Below, piece by piece: positions 1,667-54,520 of a DNA stretch of 64,000 nt. Position 1 is the first letter of the stretch. Every line of letters starts with the position of its first letter. The translations under genes and the position numbers were made by a program. Source of the DNA: Cymbidium sinense. Taxonomy: Eukaryota; Streptophyta; Magnoliopsida; Asparagales; Orchidaceae. The stretch covers positions 17,453,908-17,517,907 of the forward strand of contig CM038222.1 in the NCBI GenBank assembly GCA_021442155.1, read 5' to 3'. The notes beneath the pieces were generated by a model. It was not told where the DNA came from. It was given only the letters and a program-made list of their open reading frames with translations, and made no database searches.

Positions 1667-2151
1667 AATGGGTAGAACCTTGATGGAAGGAACATCACCA
1701 TCAACCAGGCTCAGCCTAGATTTGGCAGTGGAGATGAAGGCGGAGGCAGCGGTTATCGTAATGGTGGTGGGGGATCTGGAGGTGCTGCTGGATATGGTGG
1801 TGGTGGCCGAAGAATTGGTGATTATGGAGGCGGGAGGAGGGACAGAGGTTACAGCCGTGGTGGTGATGGAGGGAGAGATCGGGGATATGATGGTGGATCC
1901 CGCTACTTGAGAGGCTGGGGGGGTTCTGATGGGATCCAGAGAAACTAAAGAATGGCCAGTCTGATCTACTGCTTATGGAACTATGTCTTTATAGTAAAGA
2001 CGATTCTAGTTATCTAGGGTTTTTGTTTTGCCCTATGCATGCTCATTTTTTATCTATGTTATTGCTTGTGTCTTAGAAAACTTGGTGTGTCACTTGGTTG
2101 ATGAAATCGAAGAAAAGAAATGTTGAATCTGAATTTATTTTATGTTAAAAA
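1667..2151 (+). pseudogene. GRP gene 3' fragment, copy 1
   Basis: This is the 3' part of a plant glycine-rich RNA-binding protein gene of the GRP7/GRP8 type. Such proteins have an N-terminal RRM and a Gly-rich tail and act in RNA processing. The frame starting at AAT 1667 reads NG*NLDGRNITINQAQPR, the last strand of the RRM. A tail of GGG, YGGGG, RRDRGY and GGSRY motifs follows, ending at TAA 1946-1948, 93 codons later. The only internal defect is a TAG at codon 3, where the ancestor had CAG (Gln). The 3' UTR homology (TCTAGGGTTTTTG, TTGATGAAAT, then TTAAAAA) runs to about 2151. The first two thirds of the RRM and any promoter are absent, so no function is expected. Telomere-like repeats flank it on both sides. 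Confidence 0.85.
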
Positions 2152-4174
2152 GAACCCAACTACCCTAAACCCTAAACTAAAACTTGACTTAAACTTAAAA
2201 ACCCTAAATCCATGCCTTAAAACCCAAACCATAAACCCTAAATCCTAAACCATAAACCCTTCCTAAACCCCCTACCTACCCTAAACCCACTAAACCTTAA
2301 ACCACCATAACCACCCAACTCACCCTTTACTACCACACCCTAAACCCTAAATGTTAAACCCAACCTAAACCCCTGACCACTCCAAACCATAAACCCTAAA
2401 CCTTAACTCCCTAAACCCCTTGGCAGTGAGCCCTAAACCCTAAACCCTAAACCCTAAAATCCTAAAAACCTAAACCAAAACTAAATAAAGCCTAAAATTA
2501 AAATAAATAAAAAAACCTTAACCTAAATAAAATAAAATATAAAATAAAGTAAAACCTAAATTTAATGTGTGGTGACCTAAAAATAAAATAATAAATAATA
2601 AAAACTAAAATAAAATAAATAAACCTAAACTAAAAATAATAAAGAATAAAATAAATAAAATAAAATAAAATAAACCTAAAATAAAATAAAATAAAATTAA
2701 AAAAACATAAACCTAAAATAAACTTAAAAATAAAACCTAAAATAAATAAAACTAAATTGAAACCCTAAATTAAATAAAACCTTAACCTAAAAAAAATATA
2801 AACAAAACCTAAATTAAAATAACATAAATAAACTATAAGGTAAATAAATAAATAAATAAAACCATACCTTGGGTTAATTTTAAAAAAGCTAACTCTAAAC
2901 CTTAAACCCAAAATACTAAACGCTAAACCCTAAACCCTAAACTAACCTAACACTAAAACCCTAAACCACAAACCTAAATCTAAACCTAAACTAAATAAAA
3001 TCTAAAAATAAAATATATAAAACACCTAAACCTAAATAAAATAAAATAAAAAAAAACTAAACTAAAACCTAAACCTAAACCTAAAAATAAAATAAAATAA
3101 ATTAGTAACAATAAACTAAAATAAAATAAATAAAAACCAAAACAAAACTAAAAAATAAAATAAACCTAAGAATAAAAAATCTAACTAAAATAAAAACTAA
3201 ATGTAAAATGAACCTCAGTAAATAAAACTAAATAAAACCTAAACCTAAAATTAAAACCTTGAATAAATAAAAAAAATAAAACTTAAATAAACTAAAAAAA
3301 ACCTAAAACTAAAATAAAAATAAAATAAACAAATTAAAATAAACCTAAACCCAAACTTAAATAAACTAAACCAAAATAAATAAAACTGGAACCTAAACCT
3401 AAATTAACTAAAATAAAATAAACTAAAAATCAACCTAAACTGAAAAAAAAATAAACAAAAAATAAAAATCTAATAACAAAATGTAAAAAAATTAAATAAA
3501 AACCTAAACCTAAACCTAAAAATTAAAAATAAAACCTCAACTTAAATAAAAAAACTCAACCACAAAATATACTAAAATAAAATAAAAATAAAAATAAATA
3601 AAATAAATGAATTAAACCTCTGGGTTTACTTAATTAAAACCCAAAACCCAAAACCCTAAACCCTAAATAAATCCAAAACCTAAAAACCCTGAGCCTAATG
3701 ACCACAACCCTCAGGCTAAACTCTATAACCACAAACTAAACCTAAACCCTGACCCCAAAATCCTGACTAGCCTTGAACCACACAAACCCACAAACCCTAA
3801 TTTTAAACCCTAAATGGCCTTAAACCTTAGGCCAAACTAACCTAGGCCACAAACACTGTAAACATAAAAATCTTGGACCCTAAATCCTAAATCCACCTGG
3901 TAACCTGACCTTGAACCTCACCCTAAACCCTGAGCTACTAATTAAAATAAACTGAGCCCTGATACACTAAACCCACAACTAAAACCCTAAACCCTAAAAT
4001 AAACCTGACAAACCCTAAACCCTAAAAGAATAAACCATAAAACCCTAAACCTAAACCTTAAACTCTAAACCCTAAACTTAAACCCTAACCATAAACCCAA
4101 AACCCTACTTAAAGTAATTAAATAAATTAAAAAATAAACCTAAACTCTAAAACCTAAAAAACATAAACCTTAAG

Positions 4175-4668
4175 AATGGGTAGAACCTTGACGGTAGGAA
4201 CATCACGGTTAACCAAGCTTAGTCTAGATCTTGTGATGGAGGTGAAGGCGGAGACGATGATTATCGCAGTGATGGTCGGGGATCTGGAGGTGCAGGTGGA
4301 TATGGAGGTGGTGGTCAGAGCAGTGGTAGTTATGGAGGCAGGAAGAGTGACGAAGGTTACAATCGTGGTGGTGGGGGAGGAAGAGATAGGAGATATGATG
4401 GTGGATCCTAATATTGGAGAAGTTGGGGGGGGGGGGGTTCTAATGGGAATTGGAGAAACTTAAGAATGGCCAATCCGATCTGCTACTTATGTAACTATGT
4501 CTTTACCATATAGATAGTTCTAGTTATCAAGGGTTTTTGATTTACTCTATGCATGCTCTTTTTTATCTATCTCATTACTTGTGCCTTAGAAAACTTTGTG
4601 TGTTACTTGTTTGATGAAATTGAAAAGAAGAAATGTTAAATATTTATTTATTCTCTGTTAAAAATAAA
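4175..4668 (+). pseudogene. GRP gene 3' fragment, copy 2
   Basis: This fragment has the same extent as the copy at 1667. It begins at AG|AATGGG and reads NG*NLDGRNITVNQA*SRS, followed by the Gly-rich tail. It shares the codon-3 TAG with copy 1, so those two probably descend from one mutated copy. It has a second TAG at codon 16. A stop directly after GYDGGS-like sequence (DGGS*) is followed by a run of 13 G at 4425-4437 that shifts the frame. The terminal part (SNGNWRN) is readable only in another frame, and its stop codon has become TTA. The 3' UTR is recognisable to the terminal TCTGTTAAAAA near 4668. It cannot encode a functional protein. Confidence 0.83.
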
Positions 4669-5221
4669 ACTAAAAACTCTAAACCCTAAACTAAAACCTA
4701 AATCCTAGACCTAAAACCTAAACCTTAAACCATAAACCCTAATCACTAAAAACCCTAAACCCTAAAGCCTAATCCCCAAACCATAAACCTTAAAACCCTA
4801 AACCCTAAACCATAAAACCTAAACCCTAAAACCTAAACCCTAGACCTTAAAGCCTAAACCTCAAACCTTAAACCTTAAACCCTAGACCCTTAGCTAACCC
4901 TAAACCCTAAACCCTAAACCTTAAACCCTAAAAAGCTAAAAACCTAAACCTAAACCAAATAAAACCTAAAAATAAAATAAATAAAAAAACTTAAACCAAA
5001 ATTAAATAAAAAATAAAATGAAATAACAAATAAAATAAAATAAAAACCTAAACTAAAACCTAAACCTAAACCTAAACCTAATACTTAAAAAATAAAATAT
5101 AAAATAAGAACTAAATTAAGATATAATAAATAAAAAACCTAAAATAAACTAAAATATATAAAACCTACAACAACAACAATAAGCCTTTAACCCACTACAT
5201 GGGGTCAGTTACATGAATCCT

Positions 5222-7080
5222 TCATCTCCATTGTGTTCTATTATGTGTCAAATTCTCATTTACTTCAAGTATACTAAGGTCAATTTTTATACATATTAAC
5301 CATGTCTTTTTAGGTCTAGCTCTACCTTTCTTAACATAAGGCAAATCTAATGCAGCTACTCTCTTAACCGGGTCATTGGACGGCCGACACTTTATTTGGC
5401 CAAACCATCTAATGTGACTCTCTCTAATCTTTTCTGCCACTGCAGATACTCCAAATATTTCTCGAACATACTCATTTCACCTTCTATTTCTAATTGTAAA
5501 GCAACTCATCCACCTGAGCATCCTCATCACTGCAACACTTAACTTGGTCTCATGCTTCTCTTTTATTGGCAAACATTTGCACCATAAATCATTATAGGTC
5601 TTACCACCATCTTATAAAATTTTCTCTTAAGTTTAAGCAGTACTTTTCTATCACACAACAGGCCAGATGCATTCCTCCACATCAACCATCCAACTTGAAT
5701 TTTGCTAATAACATTTCCATTTATTTCACCATCATTTTGAATAATATAGCCTAAAAATTTGAATCGCTCACTCTTTTTAATGAGTTGTTCACCTAATGTC
5801 ACAATACTACCACTATAACTTCTACAACTAAAATTACTCTCCATATATTCAATTTTAGATCTACTTAAATAAAAACCTTTAGACTCTAAGGTTGACCTTC
5901 ATAATTCAAGTTTCGATTGGACTCCCTCTCTAGTCTTATCAATAATAAGAATGTCATAAGTAAAAAGCATACACCAAGGTACATCTTCTTATAAATGCCT
6001 AGTAAGAACATCCATAACTAAAACAAAAGGATAAGGGCTTAAAGCTAATCCTTGATGTAATCCAACTGAAATAGGAAAATATTTTGTCAATCGTCCTTAT
6101 GTTTGGACACAAGTAATAGCTTTAGTATACATATCCATAATGACTTGAATATAACCAATGTTAACTCCTATTTTCTATAACTCTCCAAAGAACATCTCTT
6201 GAAACTTTGTCATAAGATTTTTCTAAATAAATAAATATCATATGTAGATCCTCTTTGTTTTCTATATAATTCTTAATCAAACCTCTTAACAAATGTTTAA
6301 CATCCATAGTAGATTTAATTGGCACAAAACCAAACTGATTGTGAGAAACTTTTATACCACATCGTAACTTATGCTCAATTATACTCTCCCATAATTTTAA
6401 TGTGTGACACATTAACTTAATTCCCCTATGATTTGCACATTCTTATGCACCACCTTTACTCCTAAATATAGGAATCAACAAACTCTTTTTCCACTCATCT
6501 AGCATATTTTTAGTCTTTAAAATAACATTAAAAAGATTTGTAAGCCAAGAAATTCCTTGATCTCCTAAACATTTCCACACTTCTATTGGAATATGATCAG
6601 GTCCTAATGTTTTTCCACATTTCATTTTCCTGAAAGCTTCTTTAACTTCAGATTTACTAATACGATGATAAAAAAATTATTTATTTTTGTTTAAGGTATT
6701 AAGGTTGCAAAAATCAATCATATTTTCAGATCTTCCATTGAAAAGTTTGTCAAAATACCTCATCCACCTATTTTCAATATCCTTTTATAAGAAAACTTCT
6801 CCTATCTCTTTGGTTAGCTAACTTATAAATACATCTTTCACCTTATTTGGTATCTAATCTATTATTTAAATCACTAAAAGCCAAATTTTTTGCATCATAA
6901 ATTGCTTTCTTAGAATCTCTACATGCCACTTTATATTTTTTCCAATTCTTCGAGTTTTTACATTTAAACCAAGTTTTATAACAACACGTCTTATTTTTTA
7001 TTTTTTCTTGCACATTTTGACTCCACCATAAACTATTTTTATTAAAAGAAGCTTTTCCTTTTGATTCTCCAAGAACATTT
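5222..7080 (-). pseudogene. RTE LINE copy A reverse transcriptase region, broken
   Basis: This is the reverse transcriptase and C-terminal part of the element. In order it shows a pre-RT segment (7088-6843, ending NNRLDTK), the RT start (KCGKTLGPDHIPIEVWK at about 6625-6570), the RT core with QFGFVPIKSTMD and YLEKSYDKV (6412-6161), then the active-site region. The active site reads FTYD at 5953-5964 where the family has FADD, so the first catalytic Asp is lost. Downstream are the thumb-like piece with IQVGWLMWRNASG (5844-5563) and the C-terminal HIRWFGQIK and RARPKKTWL motifs (5440-5222). Stops and shifts separate the pieces, and about 50 bp is missing near 6795. Confidence 0.8.
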
Positions 7081-8149
7081 TTAGGCACTTGCTACTTTTT
7101 CCCACATAACATTAGCTTCCTTATGAACATCCCAAATTCTAATCTCTTGTAACTTGCTCTTAAAAATATTTTTATTAGTGTTCTTTAAGTGTCCCCATCC
7201 AATCCTAGGATAATAATTTGATTTATGTTTCATCTTCCAATCTTTCATCTTAAAATCTAAGACTAATAATCGATGATTGTTATTTAAACTTTCACTTGGA
7301 ATGACCTTACAATCTTTACAATCTAAACAATCTATTTTTCTTATCAGAAAATAATCAATATGTGTTTTACTAGATCCATTTTTATAAGTAATAATATGAT
7401 AATCTCTTTTCTTAAATAAAGTATTAGCAACTACAAAGTCATAGGCTAAAGTAAAATCTAATATAGTCCTACCTTCTTCATTAGGCACTCCAAATCCATA
7501 ACCACCATGAATACTTTTAAAATCTTCTACCACTCTACCAACATGACCATTTAAATCTCCTCCAATAAATACTTTTTCTTCAAGTGGTATGTTCTGTATT
7601 AATCCTTCAAATTCATTCCAAAAATTTTCTTTTGAGCTTACATCCAAACCTACTTGAGGAGCATAAACACTTATAACATTAATAATCTTAGTATCAATAA
7701 TAATTTTAAAGCTATAATTCTATCTGCATATTAATATTTATAACATTATCCTTCAAACTTTTATCTATAATCACACCTATGTTATTTCTAATTTGACTTC
7801 TACCTGAATACCAAAGTTTAAAACCTAAACTATCAAACTCCTTTGCTTTCTCCCTAACCAATTTAGTTTCTTGAACATATAAAATATTTATCTTTCTATG
7901 AACCATAATATTTATTAATTACTTTAGTTAACCTGTAAGAGTACCTATATTCCAAGTTCCAAACCTAATTCTAGTTTCATGGACTAACCTCTTTGCCCCC
8001 ATCCATCCATAATATGGTAACCCTTGCTTATTTAACACTGCACCTGGACATCGATGCAGCGGCCCTTGCACATTTTCACTATATTTAGGCCATAGAGCAT
8101 CGTTTCCAAGGGACGCCTTAGTACTAGTAGAATGTTTTAAAGGATTCAT
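7081..8149 (-). pseudogene. RTE LINE copy A endonuclease region, broken
   Basis: This is the N-terminal part of the RTE ORF, an endonuclease that nicks target DNA for target-primed reverse transcription. The open piece 8149-7928 ends with FGTWNIGTLTG, the usual start of the endonuclease fold (catalytic Asn). The piece 7906-7712 carries VQETKL (catalytic Glu) and GVIIDKSLKDNV. The piece 7647-7081 carries GGDLNGHVG (catalytic Asp and Asn), IDYFLIRK and NNHRLLVLD, which keeps the terminal His. The catalytic residues look mostly preserved, but at least two frame breaks separate the three pieces, so the protein cannot be made as a unit. Confidence 0.8.
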
Positions 8150-11100
8150 GTCATGATAATTTCAGCAAGTTTTACATAAATAAAATAAAAACTAAACCTA
8201 AAATAAAAACTAAATTAAAGCATAAACTAAAAAATAAACCTAAAAATAAATAAAAAATAATATCTTAACCTAAAATAAAAATAAAATAAACCTAAAACTA
8301 AACTAAAGTAAACTAAACTAAAATAAACTAAACTAAAATAAATAAAACCAAAACTTAAGCCTAAAATAAACTAAACCTAAACCATAAATATAATAAAGTA
8401 AACTAAAAATAATCCTAAACATAAACTAAAAAATAAAACCTAAAAATAAACCTAAAATAAAAATCTAAAACCTCAACCTATAAAAACAAAATAAAAACCT
8501 AAACCAAAACCTAGAATTAAAAATTAAAACCTAAACCTAAAAAATAAAATAAAAATAAAACTAAACCTAAATCGAAATTTAAACCTAGAAAAAACTAAAG
8601 AACAAAACCTAAACTAAAATAAATAAACCTAAAATAAATAAACTAAACTAAATATTAATAAAAATACAGAATAAAATAAATTAAAATAAATATAAAATAA
8701 ACTAGATAAATTAAATAAACCTAAACCTACGAGTTTACTTAATTTTTTTTTAAAAAAAAATGTTAACGCTCAACCCTAAACCCTTATACTAACCCTAAAC
8801 CCTGAACCCTAAACTACTAAACCCTAAACCCTAAATCTTAAAACCATAAACCATAAACCCTAAACTATAAACCCTAAACCCTTAACCCTAAAACCAAAAC
8901 CCTAAACCCTAAACCATAAACCCAAAACACCAAAAAAAGCTAAACCTAAACTAAATAAAACCAAAAATAAAATAAATTAAAAACCTAAACATAAATAAAA
9001 TAAATAAAATTAAATAAAATAAAAACCTAAACTAAAACCTAAACCTAAACCTAAACATAAAAATAAAATAAATGAAAAAAAACTAAACTAAAATAAAATA
9101 AATAAAAACCTAAACTAAACTAAAAAAATAAAATAAAACTAAATAAAATCAAAACTAAATGTAAAATTAAAATAAAATAAACCTAAAATAAAATAAAATA
9201 AAATAAAACTAAATAAAAACCTAACCCTATAAAATAAACCTAAAAATTAAACGTAAAAAAAAACCTAAACCCAAAACTAAAAAAGCCTAAACCTAAAATA
9301 AACAAAATAAAATAAATTTAAACCTAAACTAAAATAAATTAAACTAAGATAAATGAAACTTAAACCTAAACTTGAATTAAACTAAACCTGAACCCTAAAT
9401 TAAATAAAATAAATTAAATTAAAAATAAACTTAAACCTAAACTAAAAAATAAACATTAAAAATAAACCTAAAATAATAACCTAAAACCTAAACCTAAAAA
9501 AATAAAATAAAAACCTCAACCTAAACCTAAAAAATAAAACAAAAGTGAAAAATAAGCACAAATCTTAACTTAAAAAATAAACTAAAATTAAAAATCTAAA
9601 CTAAAATAAATAAACCTAAAATAAATAAATTAAACTAACTAAAAAAAATAAACATAAATAAAAATATCAAATAAACTAAAATAAATAAAAAAATAAACTA
9701 AATAAACCAAAACATATCAGTTTACTTAATTTAAAAAAAAACCCCTAAACCCTAAACCCTAAAACTAATCTTAAACCCTAAAATCTAAACCTAGAACCTT
9801 AAACCCTAAACTTTAAAGCTTAAAACCTACAACCCTAAACCATCAAAACCTAAAAACCTTAACCTAAACTAAAAAAAAATAGAAAATGAAAATAAATAAA
9901 AAAACCAAAACCTAAATTAAAAAAAAAAATCGTAAACTAAAACATAAACCTAAACCTAAACCTAAACGTAAAATAAAAAAAAAATTAAAACTAAAGAAAA
10001 ATAAAATAAATAAAAACCTAAACTAAACTAAAAAATATTATAAACCTAAAATAAATTAAAATAAAATAAATACTAAATAAAAACATAAACTTAAAAAATA
10101 ATTCTAAAAATAAAACCTAAAAATAAATAAAAAATTATTCCTAAACCCTAAACTAAAAAAATCTAAACCTAAAATAAATAAAATAAAATAAATATAAACC
10201 TAAACAAAAAAAATTAAAATAAAGTAAATAAAACCTAAACCTAAACCTAAAAGAAACTGAACCTAAACCTTAAACTAAGTTAGATAAATTAAACTAAAGA
10301 TAAACCTAAACCTAACTTAAAAAATAAAACATAAAAATAAACCTATAATAAAAACCTAAAACCTAAACCTAAAAAAATAAAATAAAATCTAAACGTAAAC
10401 TTACAAATAAAAAAAACATAAACCTAAAAACAAAATAAAAATAATACTAAACTAAAAAAAAACTAAGCCTAAACCTAAACCTAAAAAAGAAACTAAAATA
10501 AAAAAACCTAAACTAAAATAAATAAACCAAAAATAAATAAACTAAACTAAATAAAAAAAACAAACCTAAATAAAAATAAAAATTAAAATAAACTAGATAA
10601 ATTAAATAAATCGAAACCTATGAGTTTACTTAATTAAAAAAGAAGAACTTTAACCCTAAACCCTAAACCCTAAAACTCACCATAAACCCTAAACCTTGAA
10701 CCCTAAACCCTAAACCCTAATCCCTAAGCCCTAATCCTTAAAACCCTAAATCCTAAACCCTAAAACATAAACCCTAAACCCCAAACCATAAATCCTAAAA
10801 ACCTAAAAACCTCAACCTAAACTAAATAAAATAAAAAAATAAAATAAAATTAAAACCTAAACTAAAACATAAACTTTAACCTAAACATAAACCTAAACCT
10901 AAATGTAAATATATGTAAAAATAAAAATAAAAACCTAAACTAAACTAAAAAATAAAATAAACCTAAAAATAAAAAATCTAATAAAAAAATTAACATAAAA
11001 TATAAATAAAATAAACCTAAAAGAAAATAAAATAAAAAATAAATAAAACTTAAAATGAAAAACAAACCTAAAAACAAAACATAAAAATAAATAAAAAATA

Positions 11101-14100
11101 AAACCTAAACCCTATATTAAAAAAAAAACTAAACCCAAAACAAACTAAATAAAATAAACCTAAAAAAAACTAAATAAACTAAATAAATAAACCTAAACCT
11201 AAACCAAACTAAAATTAAAATAAAAAACTAAAATAAACCTAAAAAAATAAAATAATCCAAGAATAAAACCAAAACGTAAACCTAAAAATAAAATAAAACT
11301 TCAACCTAAACTAAACATAAAAAAAATAAACCTAAAAAAATAAACTCAAATAAAAAATAAGCATAAACCTAAACTTAAAAAATAAACTAAAACAAAAAAT
11401 AAATACTAAAATAAATAAAACTAAAATAAATAAACTAAAAAAATAAAATTAAAAAATAAACATTAATAAATAAAATAAAATAAAATAAAAAATAAAAAAT
11501 AAACTAAATAAACTAAATAAACCTAAACCTATCAGTTTACTTAATTTTTTTAGGAAAAACCCTAAACTCTTAACCCTAAACCCTAAATTCTAAATCCTAA
11601 ACCCTAAACCCTAAGCTCTAAACCTAACCCTCAACCTAAACCCACACCTAAAACCTACTAAACCCTAAACCCACCCTAAAACCCCACAACCCTAAATCTA
11701 ACCTAACCCACCTAAATCCACAAACCCCACCCTAAGCCACTCCTAAATCCACAAACCAAAAAAAACCTAAACAAAATAAAACAAAAACTAAATTAAATAA
11801 AAAAACCTAAACATAAATTAAATAAAAACTTAAATTAAAGCCTAAACCTAAACCAAAACCAAAATGTAAAAATAAAATAAAATAAAAAATAAATACTAAA
11901 TTAAAATTACATAAAATTAAAACCTAAACTAAATTAAAAAAATTAAATAAACCTAAAATTAAACACCTAAATAAAATAAAAACTAAACGTAAAATAAAAA
12001 TAAAGTTAACTTAAAATAAAATAAAAAGAAAACTAAATAAAACCTAAACCTAAAAAATAAACCTAGAAATAAATAAAAAAAATAAAACCCTAAAATAAAA
12101 ACAAAAAAAAAATAAAAGAAAACTAATAAACTTGAACTAAAATAAACTGAAATAAATTAAATAAATCCTAAAACAAAATAAAATAAACCTAAACCCTAAA
12201 CTAAATAAAATAAAATAAACTAAACATAAACCTAAACCTAAACTAAAATATTAAAGCTATAAATAAACATAAAATAAAAACCTAAAACAAACCTAAAAAA
12301 ATAAAATAAAACTTCAACCTAAACTTAAAAATAAAAATATAACCTAAACCTAAAAATAAAATAAAAATAAAACCAAACAAAATAAGCATTAACCTAAACC
12401 TAAAAAATAAACTAAAATAGAAAAACAAAATTAAAATATATTTAAATGAAGAAAATAAAATAAACTAAAATAAATAAAAAATAAACTAAATAAACCTAAA
12501 CCTATCGGTTTACTTAATTTTAAAAAAAAGACCCTAAACCATAAACCCTAAACCCTAAAACTAAAACCCTAAATTAAAAAACCCTACAAAACCCTAAACC
12601 CATCTAAAATATAAACAAAACCTAAACCTAAACCCAAAATTAAAAAAATATAAACAAAAAAAAAGCTATACCTAAATAAAATAAAAACCTAAACTAAAGC
12701 ATAAACTTAAACCTATATGCAAAAATAAAATTAAAAAAATATGAACTAAAATAAATTAAATAGAAACCTAAATTAAACTAAAATAAATAAATTAACCTAA
12801 AATAAAACAAAATAAAAACTAAATAAAAACCTAATCCTAAGAAATAAATCTCAAAATAAAATAAAAAAACACATGAAAATAAAACCTAAACCCTAAATTA
12901 AAGAAAAAAGCTAAACCTAAAATAAACAAAATAAAATAAACCTAAACTTGAACAAAAATAAACTAAACTAAAATAAATAAAACCTGAATGTAAACCTAAA
13001 ATAAACTGAACCTAAACCATAAATTAAATAGTATAAAATAAACTAAAAATAAACCTAAAGCTAACATAATAAATAAAACTAAAAAATTAACTTAAAATAA
13101 AAACTTAAAAACCTAAACCTAAAAAACTAAAATAAAAACCTAAACATAAACCTAAATATGAAAAATAAAATCTAAACCTAAAAAATAAAATAAAAATCAT
13201 ACTAAATGAAAAATTAAGCATAAACTTAAATCAAAAAAGTAAACTAAAATAAAAAAACCAAAACTAAAATAAATAAACCTAAAATAAAGAAACTAAACTT
13301 AAATAAATAAATAATATAACTAAATAAATTATAAATAAATAAACTAAAATAAATAAAAAACTAAACCTTGGGTTCATAATTAAAAAAAGTACCTATGCAT
13401 AAACCCTAAACCCAAAATCCTAAACCCTAAATCCTAAACCCTAAACCCTAAATCCTAAATCCTAAACCCTAAACCTACAACCCTGAACTTTAAATTCTAA
13501 AAAACCTTAAACCCAAAACCCAAAATCATAAAAACCTGACCTACTAAACCCTAAACCTAAACCCTAAACCCTAAAACCCAAACCTACAACCCTAAACCCT
13601 AAACCCTAAACCAGAAACCTTAACTCTAAAAACTAAAAAACCTAAACCTAAACTAAATAAATCCAAAAAAAATTAATAAATAGAAAACCTAAGCCTAAAT
13701 AAAATAAATAAAATAAAATAAAATAAAAACCAAAGCATAAAATAAACCTAAACTAAAAAAATAATAAAAATAATAAAAACTAACCTAAAATAAACTAAAT
13801 AAAAACTTAAACTAAACCAAAAAAAATAAAATTGACCTAAAAATAAATAATCTAAATAAAATAAAAACTAAACATAGAATAAAGTAAAATAAACCTAAAA
13901 TAAAATAAAATAAATACTTAATAAATACCTAAACTTAAAAAATAAACCTAAAAATGAAACCTAAAAATAGGTAAAAAATAAAATTTAAACCCTAAACTCA
14001 AAAAAATAAAATAAAATAAACCTAAACCTACACTAAAATAAATTAAACTAAAAAAATAATACCTAAAACTAAACCTAAAATAAACTAAACCTAAACCAAA

Positions 14101-22890: not shown

Positions 22891-22895
22891 GTATC

Positions 22896-26840: not shown

Positions 26841-26850
26841 GTATATCAGC

Positions 26851-28590: not shown

Positions 28591-28593
28591 TAT

Positions 28594-29546: not shown

Positions 29547-29547
29547 T

Positions 29548-30960: not shown

Positions 30961-30970
30961 AAAAATTGAT

Positions 30971-36827: not shown

Positions 36828-36893
36828 TTTGTTACTTAGTTGATGAAATAGAAAATAAGAAATGTTGAATATGAATTTGTTCTCTGTCAAAAA
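36828..36893 (+). pseudogene. GRP 3' UTR tail only, copy 8
   Basis: The text GTTACTTAGTTGATGAAAT, then AAATGTTGAATATGAATT and TCTCTGTCAAAAAAA, matches the last 65 bp of the 3' UTR seen in the seven longer GRP fragments. The coding part and the first part of the UTR are missing. The left edge coincides with the right end of the 14.5-kb insertion compartment. Telomere-like repeats follow on the right, as they do after every GRP copy. Confidence 0.8.
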
Positions 36894-41435: not shown

Positions 41436-41478
41436 AAGAAGAAATGTTGAATTTGAATTTATTTTATGTTAAAAAAAT
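41436..41478 (+). pseudogene. GRP 3' UTR tail only, copy 9
   Basis: GAAGAAATGTTGAATTTGAA followed by TTTATTTTATGTTAAAAAAA matches the extreme 3' end of the GRP UTR. It is joined directly to the end of a satellite body (AAATAAAAATAAACTATATA), with no anchor A, first telomere block or GRP coding part. This is what a deletion or unequal exchange between a plain unit and a GRP unit would leave. A telomere-like block follows it. Confidence 0.75.
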
Positions 41479-43161: not shown

Positions 43162-45074
43162 TTATGTCCTATTATGTGTCAAATTCTCATTTAATTCAGG
43201 TATACTAAGATCATATTTTATACATCTTAACCAAGTATTTTTAGGTCCACCTCTACATATTTTAACATAAGGTAAATCTAATGCATCTACTCTCCTAATT
43301 GGGTCATCAGATGACTGACGCTTTATGTGGCCAAACCATCTAAGGTGACTCTCCCTAATCTTATCTACCACAGGAGCTACTCCATCTTTTTCCCAAACAT
43401 ACTCATTTTGCATTCTATCTCTAAGAGTAGAGCCACTCATCCACCTAAGCATCCTCATCTCAGTAACACTTAACTTAGTCTTATGCTTCTCTTTCATTGA
43501 CCAACATTATGCACCATAAGTCATTGTAGGTCTTACCACCATCTTATAAAATTTTCCTTAAGTTTAAGTGGAACTTTTCTATCACATAATAGGCCAGATG
43601 CATTCCTCCACTTCAACCATCCAACTTGAATTCTACTAATAACATCTCCATTTGTTTCACCATGATTTTGAACAATAGAGACTAAATATCTAAATCGTTC
43701 ACTCTTATTAATGACTTGTTCACCTAATGTGACAACACTACCACTAGAACTTCTACAACTAAAATTACACTCCATATATTCAATTTTAGATATACTTAAA
43801 CGAAAACCTTTAGACTATAAAGTTGACCTCCATGATTCAAGTTTTTGTTGGACTCCCTCTCTAGTCTTATCAATAAGAAGAATGTCACCAGCAAATTGCA
43901 TACACCAAGGTACATCTTCTTGTAAATGCCTCGTAAGAACATTTATAACTAAAGTAAAAAAGATAAGGGCTTAAAGCTGATCCTTGATGTAATCCAACTA
44001 AAATAGGAAAATATTTTGTCAATCCTCCTTGTGTTTGGACACAAGTAACAGCTCTAGTATACATATCCTTAATGACTTGAATATAACCAATATTAACTCC
44101 TTTCTATTCTAGAACTCTCCAAAGAACATCTCTTGAAACTTTATCATAAGCTTTCTCTAAATCAATAAATATCATATGTAGATCCTCCTTATTTTTTCTA
44201 TGCTTCTCCATCAAACCTCTTAACAAATGTATAGCATCCATAGGAGATCTACCTGGCAAGAAACCAAACTGATTGTGAGAAACTTCTATATCACATCACA
44301 ACCTATGCTAAATTAATCTCTCCCATAATTTTAATGCATGGAATATTAACTTAATTCCTCTATAATTTGCACACTCTTATGCATCACCTTTATTTTTAAA
44401 TATAGGAACCAACAAACTCTTTCTCTCTCATCTGGCAACTTTTTAGTCTTTAAAATAACATTAAAAAGATTTGTAAGACAAGAAATTCCTTGATCTCCTA
44501 AACATTTCCACACTTCTATTGGAATATTATCCGGTCCTACTGCTTTTCCACATTTCATTTTCTTTAAAGCTTCACTAACTTCAGATTTACTAAAATGATG
44601 ATAAAAATGAAATTCTCTTTTTTTGTTTATGGTATTAAGGTTACTAAAAAAAATCATACTTTCAGATCCTTCATTAAAAAGTTTATCAAAATACCTCATC
44701 CACCTTTTTTTAATATCCTTTTCTATGAAAAGCACTTTATTATTTTTATCCTTAATACACCTCACTTGAACTATGTCTTTACTTCTTCTATCTCTTTGGT
44801 TGGCTAACTTATACATACATCTTTCACCTTCTTTGGTATCTAATCTATTGTATAAATCACTAAAAGCTAAATTTTTTGCATCATATATTGCTTTCTTAGA
44901 ATCTCTATATGCCACTTTATATCTTTCCCAATTCTCTGAGTTTTTACATCAAAACCAAGCTTTATAATAATGCTTCTTATTTCTTATCTTTTCTTGCACA
45001 CTCTGGCTCCACAACCAACTATTCTTATTAAAATAAGTTTTTCCTTTTGATTCTCCAAGCACATCTTTAGCAAC
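43162..45074 (-). pseudogene. RTE LINE copy B reverse transcriptase region, broken
   Basis: The long open piece 44915-44346 carries the pre-RT segment and RT start (LAFSDLYNRLDTKEGER, RWMRYFDKLFNEG, KCGKAVGPDNIPIEVWK). Next come frames with the QFGF and EKAYDK core (about 44290-44100). The active site at 43884-43895 reads FAGD where the family has FADD, so the first catalytic Asp is Gly. The C-terminal pieces are 43775-43533 (VGWLKWRNASGLLCDRK) and 43497-43162 (EMRMLRWMSG, HLRWFGHIKRQ, GGPKNTWLRCIKYDL). Several stops and shifts separate these parts. The element cannot move by itself. Confidence 0.8.
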
Positions 45075-46100
45075 TTATTTAATTTCACTTGTTATTTTTT
45101 CCCACATAACGTTAGCTTCCTTATGAACTTCCCAAATTCTAATCTCGGGTAGCTTGCTCTTAAAAATATTTTTATTTATGTTCTTTAAGTGCCCCCATCT
45201 AATCCTAGGACAATAATTTGGTTTATTTATTCTCTTACAACATTTCATATTAAAATTTAGTACTAACAATTGATGGTGGGTACATAAAATTTCACTTGGA
45301 ATGACCTTACAATCTTTACAATCTAAACGATCTATTTTTCTTATCAGAAAATAATCAATCTGTATTTTACTAGATCCATTTTTATAAGTAATAATATGTT
45401 CATCTCTTTTCTTAAAAAAATTATTAGCAACTACAAAATCATAAGCTAAGGAAAAATCTAATATAATCTTACCTTTTTCATTAGTCACTCCAAATCTATA
45501 ACCACCATTAATACTTTTAAAATCTTCTACCACTCTACCAACATGTCCATTTAAATCTCCTCCAATAAATACTTTTTCTTTAAGAGGTATCTTTTGTATT
45601 AATCCCTCTAATTCATTCCAAAATTTTTCTTTTGAGCTTACCTCCAAACCTACTTGAGGAGCATAGACACTTATAACATTGATAATCTTAATAACAATAA
45701 TAATCTTTAAAGCTATAATTCTATCTCCACATCTATTAATATTTATAACATTATCCTTCAAACTTTTATCTATAATCACACTTACACCATTTCTTGTTCC
45801 ACTTTTACCTGAATACCAAAGTTTAAAACCTAAATTATCAATCTCCTTGGCCTTCTCCCCAACCCTTTAGTTTCTTGAACAGATAAAATATTCGTCTTTC
45901 TATGAACTGTAATATCTATTAATTCCATTAATTTACCTATAAGAGTACCTATATTCCAAGATTCTAACCTAATTCTAGTTTCATGGACTAACTTCTTTGC
46001 CCACATCCGTCAATAATGTGAAAACCCTTGCTTATTTAACATTGCACCCGAGCACCGATGCAGCTCTAGCACATTTTTAACTGTATTCAAGCCATACAGC
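45075..46100 (-). pseudogene. RTE LINE copy B endonuclease region, broken
   Basis: The open piece 45779-45075 covers most of the endonuclease: MIIDKSLKDNVININRCGDR, ISVYAPQVG, EKVFIGGDLNGHVG, IDYFLIRKIDRLDCKD and HHQLLVLNF. The upstream part, about 46100-45780, is in other frames and includes the VQETK region. The catalytic GGDLN is intact and the terminal His is kept. The Asp normally found three to four residues after it is Asn in LLVLNF. The neighbouring RT lies downstream on the same strand. Loss of a single frame makes a complete protein impossible. Confidence 0.8.
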
Positions 46101-49100
46101 ACGTCACTTCCACGGGACGCCCTAGCATTAACACAATGATTTAAAGGATTCATGTCATGATTATTTCGACAAGATAAATAAAACCTAAACCCTAATCTAA
46201 AAAAAATAAACCTAAAATAAACAAAATAAAATAAGCATAAGCCTAAAATAAAATCAACTAAAGCAAAATAGATAAAATTTCAACTAAATTAGCTAAATAA
46301 AATAAAATATACTAAAAATAAACCTATACTTAAACAAAAAAATAATACCAAAAAATAAACCTAAAATGAAAACCTAAAACCTAAACCTAAAAATAAAAAT
46401 AAAACCTAAACTTAAAAAAATAAAATAAAAATAAAACTGAACTAAAAAATAAACATAAACCTAAACCTAATCGAAGAAAATAAGCTAAAATAAAAAACCT
46501 AAACTAAAAAATAAACTAAAATAAAAAACCTAAATAAAAATAAATAAACCTAAAGTAAATAAACTAAACTAAATAAAATTTTAAAATAAAACTAAATAAA
46601 CATAAAAAATAAAATAAACCAAAATAAATAAAAAATAAACTAAACAAACCTAAACCTATCGGTTTACTTAAGTTAAAAAAAAAACTCCTAAACCCTAAAA
46701 CCCAAACCCTAAACCTTAAACCCTTAACCATAAATGCTAAAACTAACCCAAATCACTAAACCCTAAACCTACAATCCTAAAAAACCCTAAACCCAAACTG
46801 ATCCTAAAACCTAAACTGTAAACCCTAAGCCTAAACTTAACCCTAGCCTAAACCTTAAACCCTAAACCTTAAACCCAAAACTAATCTTAAACCCTAAAGC
46901 TTAAACCCTAAACCTCAAATACTAAATCATAAACTAACCCTAAAACCTAAGCTAAACCTAAAGCCTAAACCTTAAACACTAAACCATAAACCCTAAATCC
47001 TAAATTGCAAAAATCTTAAACCTTAAACCCTAAACCCTGATCCCTAAAACCCTAATCGCTAAACCCTAAACCCTAAATCCTAAACCATAAACCCTAAACC
47101 TTAACCACTAAACATAAAAAAACCATAAACCCTAAAAAGCTAAAAACCTAAACCTAAACTAAATAAAACCTAAAAATAAATAAATAAAAAAATCTAAACA
47201 AAAATAATATAAAAAATAAAATAAAATAAAAACATAAATTTAAACTTAATCCTAAACCTAAACCAAAACCTAAAACTAAAAACAAAATAAAATAAAAAAT
47301 CAAAACTAAAGTAAAATAAAATAAATAATAACCTAAACTAAATTAAAAAATAAATAACCTAAATAAAATTAAAAACTAAACCTAAAATAGAAATAAAAAA
47401 AACCTAAAATAAAATAAAATAAAAATTAAATAAAAATCTAAGCCTAAACAACAAACCTAAAATTAAATAAAAAATAAAACCTAAACACTAAACTAAAAAA
47501 ATCCTAAACTTAAAATAAAAATAAAATAAACCTAAAACTAAACTAAACTAGAATAAATAAATCCTAAACCAAAACCTAAATAAACAAAACCTAAACCTAA
47601 ACTAAATAAAATAAAATAAACTAATAATAAACCTAAACCTAAACTGTAAAAAACCTAAAAATAAACCTAAAATAAAAACCTAAAACTTAAACCTAAAAAA
47701 TTAAAATAAAAACATAAACCTGAACCTAAAAATTAAAATTAAAATAAAACTAAACTAAAAAATAAACCTAAACCTAAACCTAAACATGAAAATCCTAAAT
47801 TAAAATAAATAAACCTAAAATAAATAAACTAAGCTAATTAAATAGAAAAATAAACCAAACTTAAAATAAAAAAACTAAAATAAATAAAAAAAACTAAATA
47901 AACCTAAACTTATAAGTTTACTTAATTTAAATAAATAAAAAAATTAAGAAATATTTAAAAATTTTTAAAAATAAATTCTAACCCTAAACCCTAAAATAAT
48001 CCCTAAACACTAAACTCTAAAGCCTAAACCCTAACCCCTAAACCCTAAAACCCTAAACCCTAAACCCTAAACCTTAAAACCTACAATCCTAAACCCTAAA
48101 CCCTAAACCCAAAACCATAAAAACCTAAAAACCTATACCTAAACTAAATAAAACCTAAAAATAAAATAAATAAAAAACCTAAACCTAAATAGAATAAAAT
48201 AAAAATAAAAACCTAAACCTAAACCTAAAAATAAAATAAAAAATAAAAAATAAAAACTAAACTCAAATAAAATAAATAAAAACTTAAACTAAACTGAAAC
48301 ATATAATAAACCTAAAAATAAAAAAAAACATAAATAAAATAATAACTAAATGTAAAATAAAAATAAAATAAAACTAAAATAAAATAAAATAAAAATAAAA
48401 TAAAAGCCTAAGCCTAAAAAATAAACTAAAAAATAAAACCTAAAAATAAATAAAAAATAAAATTTAAATCCAAAACAAAAAATAAACCTAAACCTAAATT
48501 AAAATAAGCTAAACTAAAATAAATAAAACCTAAACCTAGACCTAAAATAAACTAAACCTAAACCCTAAACTAGTTAAAATAAAATAAACTAAATATAAAC
48601 CTATACATAAACTAAAAAATAAAACCTAAAATGAACCTAAAATCAAAAGCTAAAAGCTAAACCTAAATAAATAAAATAAAAACCTAAACTTAAAATAAAA
48701 AAATAGAACCTAAACCTAAAAAAAGGAAATAAAAATAAAACTAAACTAAGAAATAAACATAAACCAAAACCTAAATGAAAAAAAAAATAAACTAAAATAA
48801 AATATCTTAACTAAAATAAAAAACCTAAAATAAATAAACAAAACTAAATAAAAATGACAAATAAACCTAAATAAAAATAAAAAGTTAAATTAAATTAAAT
48901 TAACAAAAAATAAACTAAATAAACATAAACTTGCCAGTTTACTTAATTTAAAAGAAAAAAAATGCTAAAACCTGAACCTTAAACCCAATGCCTTAAATCC
49001 TAAGCCATAAACCCTAAACCCTAAACCCTAAGACTAACCCTAAACCTTAAACACTAAACCTACAACCCTAAACTTACAACCCTAAACCCGAAACACTAAA

Positions 49101-49963
49101 CCCTAAACTTTAAACTATAAACTAACACTAAACTCTAAACCCTAAATCCTAAACCCTAAGCCATAAACCATAAACCCTAAAAACTTAAAAACCTAAACCT
49201 AAACTAAATAAAACCTAAAAGTAAAATAAATAAATAAAAACTTGAACCTAAATAAAATAATAAAATTAAAAAAATAAAACCTACAATAAAACTTGTACCT
49301 AAACCTAAACTTAAAAATAAAATAAAATAAAAAATATAAACTAAAGTAAAATAAAATAAATAAAAACCAAAACTAAACTAAAAAAATAAAATAAACCTAA
49401 AAATAAAACACTTAAATATAATAAAAACTAAACATAAAACAAAAAAATAAACTTAAAAGAACCTAAACATAAAAAAACTTAAACCCTAAACTAAAAATAA
49501 AAATCCAAAACCAAAAATAAATAAAATAAAATAAACCTAAACGTAAACTAAAATAAACTAAAGTAAATAAAATCTAAAACTAAACCTAAATTAAAGTAAA
49601 CTTAAATCCCAAACTAAATAAAATAAAATATACTAAAAATAAACCTATACTTAAACTAAAAAATAAAACCAAAAAATAAACATAAAAAACCTAAAACCTA
49701 AACCTCTGAATAAAAAATAAAACCTAAACCTAAAAAATAAACTAAAAATAAAACTAAACTAAAAAGTAAAAATAAACCTAAACCTAAACCAAGAAAATAA
49801 ACTAAAATTAAAAATTGAACCAAAAAAATAAGCTAAAATAAAAAACCTAAACTAAAATAAATAAACTAAACTAAATAAAATTAAAAAATATTCCTAAATA
49901 AAAATAAAAAATTAAACAAACTAAAATAAATAAAAAATAAACTAACAAAACCTAAACCAATCA

Positions 49964-51030
49964 GTTTACTTAATTAGAAAAAACCCTAAATCCTAACCCT
50001 GAAAAACCTAAACCCTAAATACTAAACCTTATACCCTAAGCCTTAAACCCTAAAACTAACCTCAAATCCTAAACCTTAAACTTACAACCCTAATCCTTAA
50101 ACCCTAAAAGACCCTAAACTCTAAACCCTAAACCATAAACCCTAAAACTTAAACCCTAAACCTTAAACCCTAAAACTTAAACCCTAAACCCTAGTCTTTA
50201 AACCCTAAACCCTAAACCCTAAAGAGCTAAAAACATAAACCTAAACTAAATAAAACCTAGAAATAAAATAAATAAAAAAACCTAAACCAAAATAAAATAA
50301 AAGCTAACACATAAACTTAAACCTAAACCTAAACCTAAGCCTAAAAGGAAAATAAAATAATAAATAAAAACTAAGTTAAAATAAAATAAACACAAACCTA
50401 AAGTAATCTAAAAAATAAAAACCCTAAATAAAATTAAAACTAAACTTAAAATAAAAATTAAATAAACCTAAAATAAAATAAAATAAAAATTATATAAAAA
50501 CCTCAACATAAAAAATAAACCAAAAAAATAAAAACCTAATCTTAAAATAAAAATAAAATAAACCTAAACCTAAACATAAAATAAAGCAAACTGAACTAAA
50601 ATAAATAAAATCTAAACCTAAACTAAAAATAAACTAAACCTAAACCTAAACCCGAACTTAATAAAATAAAAAAAACTAAAAATAAACCAAAACCTAAACT
50701 AAAAAATAAAACCTAATAATAAACTAAAAATAAAATCCTAAAACCTTAACCTAAAAAATCAAATCAAAATCAAAACCTAAACCTAAAAATAAAAAATAAA
50801 ACCTAAACTTAAAAAATAAAATAAAAATATAACTCAACTAAAAAATAAACCTAAACCAAAACCTAAAAAAATAAACTAAAATAAAAAACCTAAACTAAAA
50901 TAAATAAACCTAAAATAAGTACACTAAACTTAATTAAAACAAAAATGAACATAAATAAAAATAAAAAATAAAATAAACTAAATTAAATAGAAAAATAAAC
51001 TAAATAATCTAAATAAACCTAAACCTACTA
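49964..51030 (+). repeat. Representative plain satellite unit, 1067 bp
   Basis: Anchor A lies at 49964-49975, then a telomere-like block to about 50220 with the variant CTTACAACCCTAAT at 50081, anchor B at 50225, and the AAATAAA/CCTAAA body to 51030. The body contains phrases that recur in order in other units, such as AAAACTAAATAAAAACCTAA early and AAATAAGCATAAACCTAAAC-like text late. The + strand of this unit contains almost no G. Confidence 0.75.
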
Positions 51031-52343
51031 GTTTACTTAATTTAAAAAAAAATACTAAACCCTAATCCATAAGCTACCCATAAACCCTAAGCCCTAAACC
51101 CCAAAAACCCTAAACTATAAAGCCAAAACACTAAACTCTTAACCGTAAATCTTAAACCTATCCCTAAACCCTAATCCCTAAACCCTAAAACCCTAAACTC
51201 TAAAAATTTTAAACCTTAAAACCAAAACCATAAAAACCTAAAAACCTAAACCTAAACTAAATAAAACCTAAAAATATAAAATATAAAAAAAAATCTAAAC
51301 TTAAATATAATAATAAAATGAAATAAAATAGAAACCCAAACTAAAACTAAAATGTAAACCTAAACTTAAAAATAAAATAAAATAAACTAATCAAAATAAA
51401 TTATAATAAAATAAATAATAACATAAACAAAATAAAATAAAATAAAATAAACCTAAGAATAAAAGACCTAAATAAAAAAATTTGAACATAAAATAAAAAT
51501 AAAATAAACCTAAGATAAAATAAAATAAAAACTAAATAAAAAATTTAAACCTAAAAAGTATAACCTAAAAATAAAACCTAAAAATAAATAAAAAATAAAA
51601 CCTAAACTTTAAACTATAAAAAAACCTAAACCAAAAATAAAAAAATAATAATAAAATATTCCTAGACCTAAACTAAAATAAATAAAACCTAAACCTAAAC
51701 CTAAGCCTAAAGCTAAACTAAATAAAATAAAATAAACTAAAAATAAATATAAACTAAAAAAAAAACTTAAAAACAAACCTATAATAAAAACCTAAAACCT
51801 AAAATTAAATAAATAAAATAAAAATGTAAACCTAAACCTAAAAATTAAAATTAAAACCTAAACTTAAAAAATAAAAATAAAAAACTCTATAAAAATTAAC
51901 CTTATCCTAAACCTAAACCTAAAAAAGAAACTAAAATAAAAGTTAAACAAAAATTAAGAAACCTAAAATAAATAAACTAAATAAAAATAAAAAATTAACC
52001 TAAATAAAAATAAAAAATAAAGTAAACTAAAATAAATAAAAAATAAACTAAATATACTAAATAAACCTAAACCTACCAGTTTACTTAATTTTTTTTAAAA
52101 AAAACTTAAATTCTAAATCCTAATCCCTAATCCTTAAACCCCAAACCCAAAATACTAAAAAACTTAAACCTTAAATCCTAAACCATAACCTTAAACCCTA
52201 AAAACCTAAACCCTAAGCTCTAAACCCTAAACCCTAACTCTAAACCCTAAACCCAAAACCCTAAACCCTAAACCGAAATGTAAAGTAACTAAATAAATTA
52301 AAAAATAAACCTAAACCAAATAAACCTAAACATAAACCCTAGG

Positions 52344-52838
52344 AATGGCCAAAACCTTGACATCAAAAACATCACCGTCAACCAGGCTCACTCTATATCT
52401 AGTAGTGGAGGCAATGGTAGACGTGGCAGTTATCGTAGTGGTGGTGGTTGATTTGGAGGTGCTGGTGGATATGGAGGTGGTGGATGGAGCAGTGGTGGTT
52501 ATGTAGGCGGGAGGGGTGACAGAGGTTACAACTGTGGTGGAGGTAGAGGCAAAGATCGGGGATATAATGGTGGATCCCGCTACTCGAGAGGTTGGGGTGG
52601 TTCTGATGGGAACTGGAAAAACTGAAGAATGGCCAATCCGATCTACTACTTATGGAATTTTATCTTTTTAATAGAGACAATTCTAGTTATCTAGGGTTTT
52701 TTATTTGCTCTATGCGTGCTCATTTTTTATCTATGTCATCGCTTGTGCCTTTGAGAACTTAGTGTGTTACTTGGTTGATGAAATTAAAAAGAAGAAATGA
52801 TGAATCTAAATTTGTTCTCTATTAGAAAAAACTACAAA
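52344..52838 (+). pseudogene. GRP gene 3' fragment, copy 6
   Basis: The frame from AAT 52344 reads NGQNLDIKNITVNQAHSISS, then GNGRRGSYRSGGG, one TGA, FGGAGGYGGGGWSSGGY, RGDRGYNCGGGRGKDRGYNGG and GWGGSDGNWKN to TGA at 52623-52625. The premature TGA stands where other copies have GGA or GGG. It keeps the Gln at codon 3 and the Trp near the end, so it is free of the stops that mark copies 1-2 and 3-4. The usual flank AAGTAACTAAATAAATTAAA lies upstream (about 52276). The UTR runs to about 52838. The next unit also bears a GRP fragment. Confidence 0.84.
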
Positions 52839-54032
52839 CCCTAAAAATAAAAATAAATATAATAAAATCCTAACCCTAAACCATAAACCCTAACATTAAC
52901 CCTAAACCCTAAACCCTAAGCACTAAACCTGAACCCTAAACCTTAAACCTAAATGTTAAACCATAAACATTAAACCCTAAAAACCCTAAATCATAGACCC
53001 TAAGCCCTTAACCATAAAACCCTAAACCATAAACCCTAAATCATAAAACCTAAACCCTAAACCCTAAACCATAAACCCTAAATTAATAAAACCTAAGCCT
53101 AAACTAAATAAAATTATAAAAAACATAAACCAAAATAGAATAATAAAATAAAATAAAATAAAATAGAAACTATAATCGAAACTTAAACCTAAACCTAAAA
53201 AAAACTAATAATAAAATAAAATAAATAAAAACCTAATCTAAATTAAAAAAAATAAAAAACCTAAATAAAATAAAAAGTAAAACTAAAATAAAAATAAATT
53301 AAACATGAAATAAAATAAAATAAAAACTAAATAAAAACTTAATCCTAAAAAGTAAACCTAACAATAAAACCTAAAAAAAAAAAAAAAGAAAACCTAAATC
53401 ATGAACTACAAAAAAACCTAAACCTAAAATAAAAATAAAATAAATAAATTAAAAAAACATAAATCTAAAGTAAAATAAATTGAACTAAAATAAATAAAAC
53501 CTAAACCTAAACTAAAAAAAATTAAATAAACTAAAAGTAAACGTAAACTACCTAAAAATAAATCAAAAGTAAAAACCTAAAACTTAAACCTAAAAAAATA
53601 AAATAAAAACCTAAAACTAAAAATAAACTAAAATAAAAAATCTAAACTAAAATAAAAAACTAAACTAAATAAAAATAAAAATAAACCTAAATAAAAATAA
53701 AATATAAACTAAATATACTAAATAAACATAAACGTACGAGTTTAATTAATTTAAAAAAAAAGACCCTTAAACCTTAAATCCTAAACCCTAAACCCTAAAC
53801 CCCAAACCCAAAACCCAAAACCTACAACCCTAAACTCTAAACCCTAAAAAACCCTTAACTCTAAACCCTAAACCCTAACCATAAATAATAAAACCCTAAA
53901 ACCTAAGCCCTAAATCATAAACATTAACCCTAAACCCTAAACCCAAAACCCCAAACCCTAAACCTAAACCTAAAGTAACTAAATAAATTAGAAAATAAAC
54001 TTAAACCTTATAAACCTAAACATAAACATTAA

Positions 54033-54520
54033 GATGGGAAAAAACCTTTACTGCAAGAACATCACCATCAAACAGGCTCAGTCTAGATCTGGCAATGGAG
54101 GCAAAGGCAAAGGTGGAAATTATCGCAATGGTGGTTGGGGATCTAGAGGTACTGGTGGATATGGAGGTGGTGGTCGAAGCAGGGATGGTTATGAAAGCGG
54201 GAGGAGTGATGGAGGTTACAACTATGGTAGTGGTAGAGGGGAGATCGGGGATATGATGGTGGTTCCGCTACTTGAGAGGTCGAGATGGTTTTGATGGGAA
54301 CCGGAGAAACTAAAGAACGATTGATCTGATCTGCTGCTTATGGAACAGTGTCTTTACAGTAGAGAATCTTCTAGTTATCTAGGGTGTTTGATTTGTTCTA
54401 TGCAAGCTCATTTTTTGTCTATGTCATCACTTGTGTCTTAGAGAACTAAGTGTGTTAATTAGTTGATGAAATGAAAAAGAAGAAATGTTGAAATTTAATT
54501 TGTTCTCTATTAAAAAAACC
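54033..54520 (+). pseudogene. GRP gene 3' fragment, copy 7
   Basis: The fragment starts at AG|ATGGG with one A missing relative to the AATGGG of other copies. The GRP frame is MGKNLYCKNITIKQAQSRSG, then GGNYRNGGWGSRGTGGYGGG and GYNYGSGRG. A one-base loss within the GRDRGYDGG motif near 54240 shifts the frame, and the rest (GSDGNRRN) is read in another frame. The ATG at 54034 is in the GRP frame by chance of the deletion, giving an 86-codon open frame. That frame lacks the RRM core and ends out of frame, so I do not treat it as a gene. The UTR variant is CTAGGGTGTTTG near 54380. Confidence 0.83.

What the first reader, a model, noticed from the sequence alone, without database searches (positions are those of the whole stretch)
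1667..54520. A GRP gene 3' fragment captured by the telomeric satellite and spread with it (seven copies)
Seen: fragments at 1667, 4175, 16877, 21219, 38920, 52344 and 54033. All are on the plus strand, start at the same codon of the RRM end (NGQNLDGRNITVNQAQSR), carry the whole Gly-rich tail and end at the same UTR A-run. Each lies inside a telomere-like block between anchor A and anchor B. Known: GRP7/8-type proteins have an RRM plus a Gly-rich tail. Inference: one capture event, followed by amplification of a compound unit of 1.65-2.1 kb. I know of no described satellite of this composition.
Basis: partly seen in the sequence, partly recalled or inferred. Interest (0 to 1): 0.87.

Follow-up and report, generated by a model that had tools for sequence, protein, structure and literature searches.

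The report
Gene tail carried in telomere-like satellite
In what looks like an orchid genome, the tail end of one ordinary RNA-binding-protein gene was caught once inside telomere-like repeat DNA and has since been copied to many places, at least partly as a passenger in a larger block with retroelement pieces.

Summary
One capture is strongly supported. With 117 gene bases added before and 113 after the fragment, none of the 39 other full copies scored crosses either breakpoint; only the intact gene on contig C13 runs through. All 40 copies tested have telomere-type motifs on both sides. 'Spread by the satellite' is incomplete. The 20 best relatives of the first window copy also share non-satellite flanks: a Ty3/gypsy-type element joined to the array at one junction (19 of 20) and an RTE-type LINE on the other side. 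Their two GRP copies form two clades that exclude the window's five other copies. 14 of 40 best hits of the first copy have a best RTE hit 4.5-6.1 kb downstream, same orientation (0.011 pairs expected). Best reading: one capture, amplification within a ~0.94-kb-period array, then dispersal of an array piece in a composite block. LTRs, block ends and target-site duplications were not found, so the mover is inferred. Interesting variant of known satellite-retroelement traffic.

The parts
1667..2147 (+). GRP 3' fragment, class A (next to the gag side)
4175..4660 (+). GRP 3' fragment, class B (next to the LINE)
16877..17338 (+). GRP 3' fragment in the array; 11 other places at 82-85% identity
21219..21692 (+). 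GRP 3' fragment in the array
36826..36887 (+). truncated GRP tail abutting a gypsy-type element
38920..39387 (+). GRP 3' fragment in the array, frame unbroken
41430..41470 (+). truncated GRP tail in the array
52344..52826 (+). GRP 3' fragment in the array
54033..54512 (+). GRP 3' fragment in the array, first bases degraded
1131..5164 (.). telomere-like/A-rich array with GRP classes A and B
8176..22358 (.). telomere-like/A-rich array, ~0.94 kb period
36888..43092 (.). telomere-like/A-rich array
46171..56930 (.). telomere-like/A-rich array
1..1130 (-). gag-side flank of a Ty3/gypsy-type element; shared junction with the array at about 1131
5165..8175 (-). RTE-type LINE no. 1; its 3' junction is shared with 9 of 20 loci by pattern, its 5' junction with the one locus extended
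43093..46170 (-). RTE-type LINE no. 2, 85.7% identical to no. 1, other junctions
28597..36825 (-). second gypsy-type element (gypsy2), adjoining a truncated GRP tail

Best explanation
The 3' end of a GRP messenger (last 18 residues of the RRM, the Gly-rich tail, 3' UTR) was inserted once into a telomere-like repeat cluster, most likely as a 5'-truncated retrocopy. The array, with a basic period of about 0.94 kb, multiplied some GRP-bearing clusters by ordinary satellite amplification, which gave several diverged GRP classes. An RTE-type LINE inserted into it. Later a piece of the array (class A - class B - LINE - more array) came to lie upstream of gag of a Ty3/gypsy-type element, and that composite was copied to many sites. 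GRP rides along as broken passenger DNA, antisense to the retroelements. Shown: one breakpoint pair, telomere-like flanks, shared junctions, clades, co-location. Inferred: the retrocopy step, the order of events, and that gypsy machinery did the copying.
For: Breakpoints: 38 of 39 other full copies start at query 117-118, one at 130, all 39 end at 596-608; only the gene spans 1-721. Consensus rows of classes A, B and array copies share a 6-bp, two 3-bp gaps and a 2-bp insertion against the gene. Telomere motifs on both sides in 40 of 40 copies; 4.7% of 2000 random single 300-bp non-array stretches have one. Gag|array junction in 19 of 20 loci and the window; array|LINE 3' junction in 9 of 20 loci by a strict pattern, the other 11 not inspected by it; LINE 5'|array junction in the one extended locus. 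A and B are clades, 100/97 and 99/96. 14 of 40 best hits of copy 1 have a best LINE hit 4,495-6,115 bp downstream in the same orientation; 0.011 pairs within 12 kb expected. RT 8.9e-18 and integrase zinc-binding domain 7.2e-7 in Ty3/gypsy order in L050.
Against: No LTR, primer-binding site, target-site duplication or block end was seen. L047 has array where the gag side should be. Segment distances among loci correlate only weakly (r 0.015-0.382, flawed for class B). Known satellite-bearing elements have the array downstream of gag-pol, here it is upstream of gag. The A-run (3-8 A) is short and lies in A-rich DNA, so it is weak evidence for a retrocopy; the intron lies outside the fragment and cannot test it.
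Confidence: 0.6

Rival explanations
1. Element first: fragment and telomere-like repeats arose or were captured inside the gypsy-type element, and the long arrays expanded out of inserted elements.
For: This direction was favoured for Lathyrus Ogre satellites (passages of PMC7004042). The 16877 class is also linked to LINE hits at 9.0-9.6 kb in three places, the window included.
Against: The five window array copies fall outside the A and B clades and are more diverged (0.792 among themselves against 0.889 and 0.873). But there are only five, all from one window, and the loci were chosen by likeness to copy 1.
Confidence: 0.2
2. The block spread by segmental duplication or re-insertion of circular DNA; the retroelements are old residents copied along.
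For: No LTRs or duplications seen; block can exceed 20 kb; pairs of the 16877 class 40,323 bp apart near the window.
Against: Places far apart, both strands (23 of 40 on +), no two copy-1 hits within 60 kb, the same gag|array junction in 19 of 20 loci.
Confidence: 0.17
3. Repeated independent insertions of GRP retrocopies into telomere-like DNA.
For: None found beyond the A-run at the 3' end.
Against: The same 5' breakpoint and shared indels.
Confidence: 0.02

Closest known systems
Tat/Ogre LTR retrotransposons with tandem repeats that also form long satellites (Vondrak et al. 2019, PMC7004042, passages read; Macas et al. 2009 seen only as cited there)
   Same: Array present both as a long satellite and inside dispersed Ty3/gypsy-type elements; pol-deleted versions; the same question of array-first or element-first.
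   Different: There the array lies downstream of gag-pol; here upstream of gag, is telomere-like and holds a host-gene 3' end. LTRs were not found here.
Interstitial telomeric-like repeats of seed plants (review PMC8621592, passages read)
   Same: Telomere-like arrays away from chromosome ends, proposed to amplify like satellites; Dendrobium among the genera listed.
   Different: The passages seen mention no captured gene fragment and no retroelement carrier.
Processed (retro-)pseudogenes (recalled)
   Same: 5'-truncated, ends in an A-run, broken frames.
   Different: Copied on as part of a repeat block; intron loss cannot be tested.
Pack-MULEs and gene-capturing Helitrons (recalled)
   Same: A host exon carried to many sites as a passenger.
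   Different: Ends of those transposons were neither sought nor seen; the carrier is an array with retroelement flanks.

Membership tests
Satellite DNA | head-to-tail tandem organisation with a regular period | tested here: met
   ~0.94 kb period on 8176-16870; many self-matches in the same orientation
Interstitial telomeric-like repeat | CCCTAAA-type clusters inside a chromosome | tested here: met
   39 cluster segments in the window, window at 17.45 Mb of a 157.9 Mb contig
Ty3/gypsy LTR retrotransposon (flank) | RT upstream of integrase | tested here: met
   L050 minus strand: RVT_1 8.9e-18 at 5206-4730, then Integrase_H2C2 7.2e-7 at 3606-3316 and weak rve (0.0018, below cut-off) at 3174-2938
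Ty3/gypsy LTR retrotransposon (flank) | two LTRs, primer-binding site, target-site duplication | tested here: inconclusive
   none seen in 26 kb of one locus; block ends not reached
Tat/Ogre lineage | second (archaeal-type) RNase H | tested here: inconclusive
   a candidate stretch recognised by eye, L050:4341-4045, gave 0 Pfam families
Tat/Ogre lineage | tandem array downstream of gag-pol | tested here: not met
   the telomere-like array lies upstream of gag
RTE-type LINE | endonuclease plus RT, short-repeat 3' end | tested here: inconclusive
   PF14529 at 0.00028 and 0.0025, both below cut-off; two RT-region pieces not matched; CAA/TTG-repeat end seen; the name RTE is recalled
Processed pseudogene | no introns, poly(A), target-site duplication | tested here: inconclusive
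   intron lies outside the fragment; A-run of 3-8 A; duplication cannot be told in a repeat

The most novel reading that the evidence does not exclude
GRP lies antisense to the gypsy-type element and to the LINE, so transcripts of the block would join UUUAGGG-type RNA to antisense GRP. With very many copies this could be a genome-wide source of small RNAs against the host GRP messenger, tying a telomere-like satellite block to a host RNA-binding protein. The sequence allows it: 60 of 466 gene 21-mers occur exactly in at least one of only 40 copies, covering 232 of 486 bases. Nothing here shows transcription.
Probability: 0.06. Interest if true: 0.75.

Novelty: new variant of a known kind. Interest (0 to 1): 0.52.

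Why it matters
A host-gene fragment with fixed breakpoints is an internal marker inside telomere-like satellite DNA, which is otherwise too simple to align. It makes the history of such DNA readable: units can be compared, and array-first told from element-first. The direction of traffic between satellites and retroelements is a question put in the literature (PMC7004042, passages), and this marker could decide it in a 3.5-Gb genome.

Tried and rejected
Independent insertions: rejected for the copies scored. Coding function: unlikely; 34 of 40 copies have an in-register stop, 16 a frameshift, 4 neither (two of these 4 lack their 5' part in the alignment), and the class A and B consensus rows have a stop as third codon. 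A regular 1.65-2.1 kb unit: not found. The L049 arrangement (gypsy2 integrase joined to a cut LINE) as part of the unit: rejected, 39 of 40 LINE hits stop at that joint. Structured RNA: no Rfam match at gathering score in the window. Relatives through predicted proteins: the antisense ORF 38827-39264 gave none of 54 candidates at E <= 1e-5, the ORF at the gag|array joint none of 7 at E <= 0.001. Segment-distance correlation: weak and flawed, not used. Not done because the genome search did not complete: classes of the copies at 21219, 38920, 52344, 54033; a genome-wide count of the left junction; searches across the joints at 36826 and 8175.

Rows dropped: of 49 GRP matches, 40 of at least 380 gene bases went into shorter ones did not. 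One search printed only matches of 120 or more, of 200 or more.

Papers: passages only of PMC7004042, PMC12940908, PMC11540329, PMC8633000 and PMC8621592; all others were seen as search listings. Paper searches: in an open-licence library.
Full report
WHAT IS THERE. The seven fragments are real: blastn with the first finds the other six at 76.4-81.3% identity, all on +. A scan with 41 sequences adds two truncated tails, 36826-36887 and 41430-41470. The arrays between are strongly strand-asymmetric: in the 16 bins of 500 bp from 8501 to 16500, G is 1-4% and A 52-69%. They alternate telomere-like clusters (CCCTAAA type) with A-rich stretches; on 8176-16870 the period is about 0.94 kb. Each of the seven fragments sits between two cluster segments (14 of 39 segments); 25 segments do not flank a full fragment, two of them beginning at the truncated tails.

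THE DONOR GENE. In L009 it has an unbroken two-exon frame ending GGSDGNWRN (exons joined by me). The second-best two-part candidate, on C17, is 59% identical and gave no DNA match to the fragment. The best protein relatives are from orchids: Dendrobium chrysotoxum 94% over 51% of the query, Phalaenopsis equestris 92% over 53%. Seventeen contigs of 73-377 Mb were seen, numbered up to C20, the next one seen (C28) having 1.7 Mb. This fits Cymbidium (C. ensifolium: 20 pseudochromosomes, 3.62 Gb, passages of PMC8633000; C. sinense estimate 3.52 Gb, table in PMC11540329). Against it, C. ensifolium's longest is 236 Mb and here it is 377 Mb; the species stays an inference.

ONE CAPTURE. The fragment starts inside exon 2 (L009:1597, not at the intron) and ends at about L009:2086, after which the gene reads on and the copies read an A-run, 3-8 A in the seven window copies. 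Query L009:1480-2200 reaches 117 bases before the fragment and 113 after its furthest end. Of 40 candidates scored one is the gene (1-721) and 39 are copies: 38 start at query 117 or 118, one at 130, and all 39 end between 596 and 608. Two further short matches beside copies begin inside (242, 496) and end at 602. So no scored copy carries gene sequence beyond either end. The consensus rows of three groups share four indels against the gene. First-look candidates number 12,927, 11,181 and 12,741; these are word matches, not counted copies. Copies scored over most of their length lie at 119 different places (40 + 40 + 39, window copies included; lists compared), a lower bound. The best copy is 86% identical to the gene; by alignment columns 40 copies are 82-88%. 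The capture is therefore not recent; I claim no date.

NOT JUST A SATELLITE. The 20 best relatives of the first window copy were fetched with 9.0-9.5 kb each. They also align outside the array: L041 aligns over 9.3 kb or more with L040, L042, L045 and L048 at 82-83%, and with most others over long parts. The gag-side flank meets the array at one recognisable sequence (GGAAATC|AAACTAAAATAAAATAAAC and variants) in 19 of 20 loci and at window 1131; L047 has array there instead. On the other side the array meets the 3' end of an RTE-type LINE; a strict pattern finds this junction with like preceding sequence in 9 of 20 loci and at window 5168. The other 11 loci were not matched by the pattern and not inspected by it. 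The window's second LINE, at 43096, has another junction. Beyond the LINE's 5' end the array resumes with the same junction in the window (8175) and in the one locus extended for this (L051). The gag-side flank leads on the minus strand into RT and integrase; gag, protease and a second RNase H were recognised by eye only, and the gag pieces and the RNase H candidate gave no Pfam match. In L034 and L043 the gag side is joined directly to the 3' side, most of pol being absent (my reading of coordinates).

CLASSES AND ORDER. Forty copies of at least 380 gene bases and the gene give a tree with class A (next to gag, 21) and class B (next to the LINE, 14) as clades, 100/97 and 99/96. The five window array copies fall outside both; 17 of 38 inner branches are open. 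Mean identities: A 0.889, B 0.873, array copies 0.792, A-B 0.821, A-array 0.802, B-array 0.801. I read this as array copies first, two of them carried off together later. Against over-reading: five array copies, one window, loci chosen by likeness to copy 1. The copy at 16877 has 11 other places at 82-85%, the remaining 28 scored being 78-81%, so it too may belong to a dispersed class.

CO-LOCATION. 14 of the 40 best hits of copy 1 have one of the 40 best LINE hits 4,495-6,115 bp downstream in the same orientation; two more pairs lie at -7,467 and +15,483. Pairs within 12 kb expected by chance: 0.011. Within 60 kb there are 5 pairs of copy-1 and 16877-class hits and 6 pairs of LINE and 16877-class hits, all in the same orientation; three LINE pairs lie at 9,034, 9,413 and 9,595 bp, the last being the window. 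The moved block may thus exceed 20 kb. A comparison of distances between segments gave weak correlations (r 0.015-0.382; 34 to 963 of 2000 shuffles as high) and is flawed for class B, where loci lacking B were filled with other copies; I do not rest on it.

HOW IT LIKELY WORKS. A 5'-truncated GRP transcript inserted into telomere-like DNA; satellite amplification; then dispersal with retroelement flanks. The first step is inferred from truncation and a short A-run in A-rich DNA; the last from shared junctions, scattered places on both strands (23 of 40 on +) and pol-deleted versions. LTRs and target-site duplications were not found in the 26 kb read at one locus.

FUNCTION. The fragments look like passengers: 36 of 40 have an in-register stop or a frameshift, 4 have neither. 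They are antisense to the gypsy-type element and to the LINE.

KNOWN AND NEW. Tandem arrays inside Tat/Ogre elements, and the two directions of exchange with long satellites, are described (PMC7004042, passages). Ogre and Tat lineages are reported in another orchid genus (PMC12940908, passages). Here the array is upstream of gag, telomere-like, and holds a host gene's 3' end. In paper searches, of an open-licence library and seen as listings, I found no description of such a satellite.

Noticed in passing
whole genome, contigs C1 and C9: The best hits are enriched on C1 (13, 21 and 20 of 40 and 13 of 39; it is 10.7% of the genome) and, except for the gene query, on C9. This may partly reflect how the search ranks tied candidates.
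   Followed up: partly
window 22359-28000 and 57000-64000: Two L1-like LINE stretches on + (RT match 3.3e-21 at 22980-23750), 64% alike over 2.3 kb, both next to the arrays.
   Followed up: no
window 26842-28550: Internal repeats of about 250 bp, 75% alike, beside the end of gypsy2; possibly its own tandem 3' region.
   Followed up: no
window 32617-33161: Internal repeats 73-75% alike within gypsy2.
   Followed up: no
L033 1-2888: Pol sequence in this locus is joined to the gag side of the block, suggesting a chimeric or deleted element.
   Followed up: partly
L049 1424: A gypsy-type integrase region is joined to a cut LINE; private to this locus, 39 of 40 LINE hits stop there.
   Followed up: yes
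C9:17430461, outside the window on its left: A relative of the copy at 16877 lies 40,323 bp from it on the same strand, suggesting a still larger repeated unit here.
   Followed up: no
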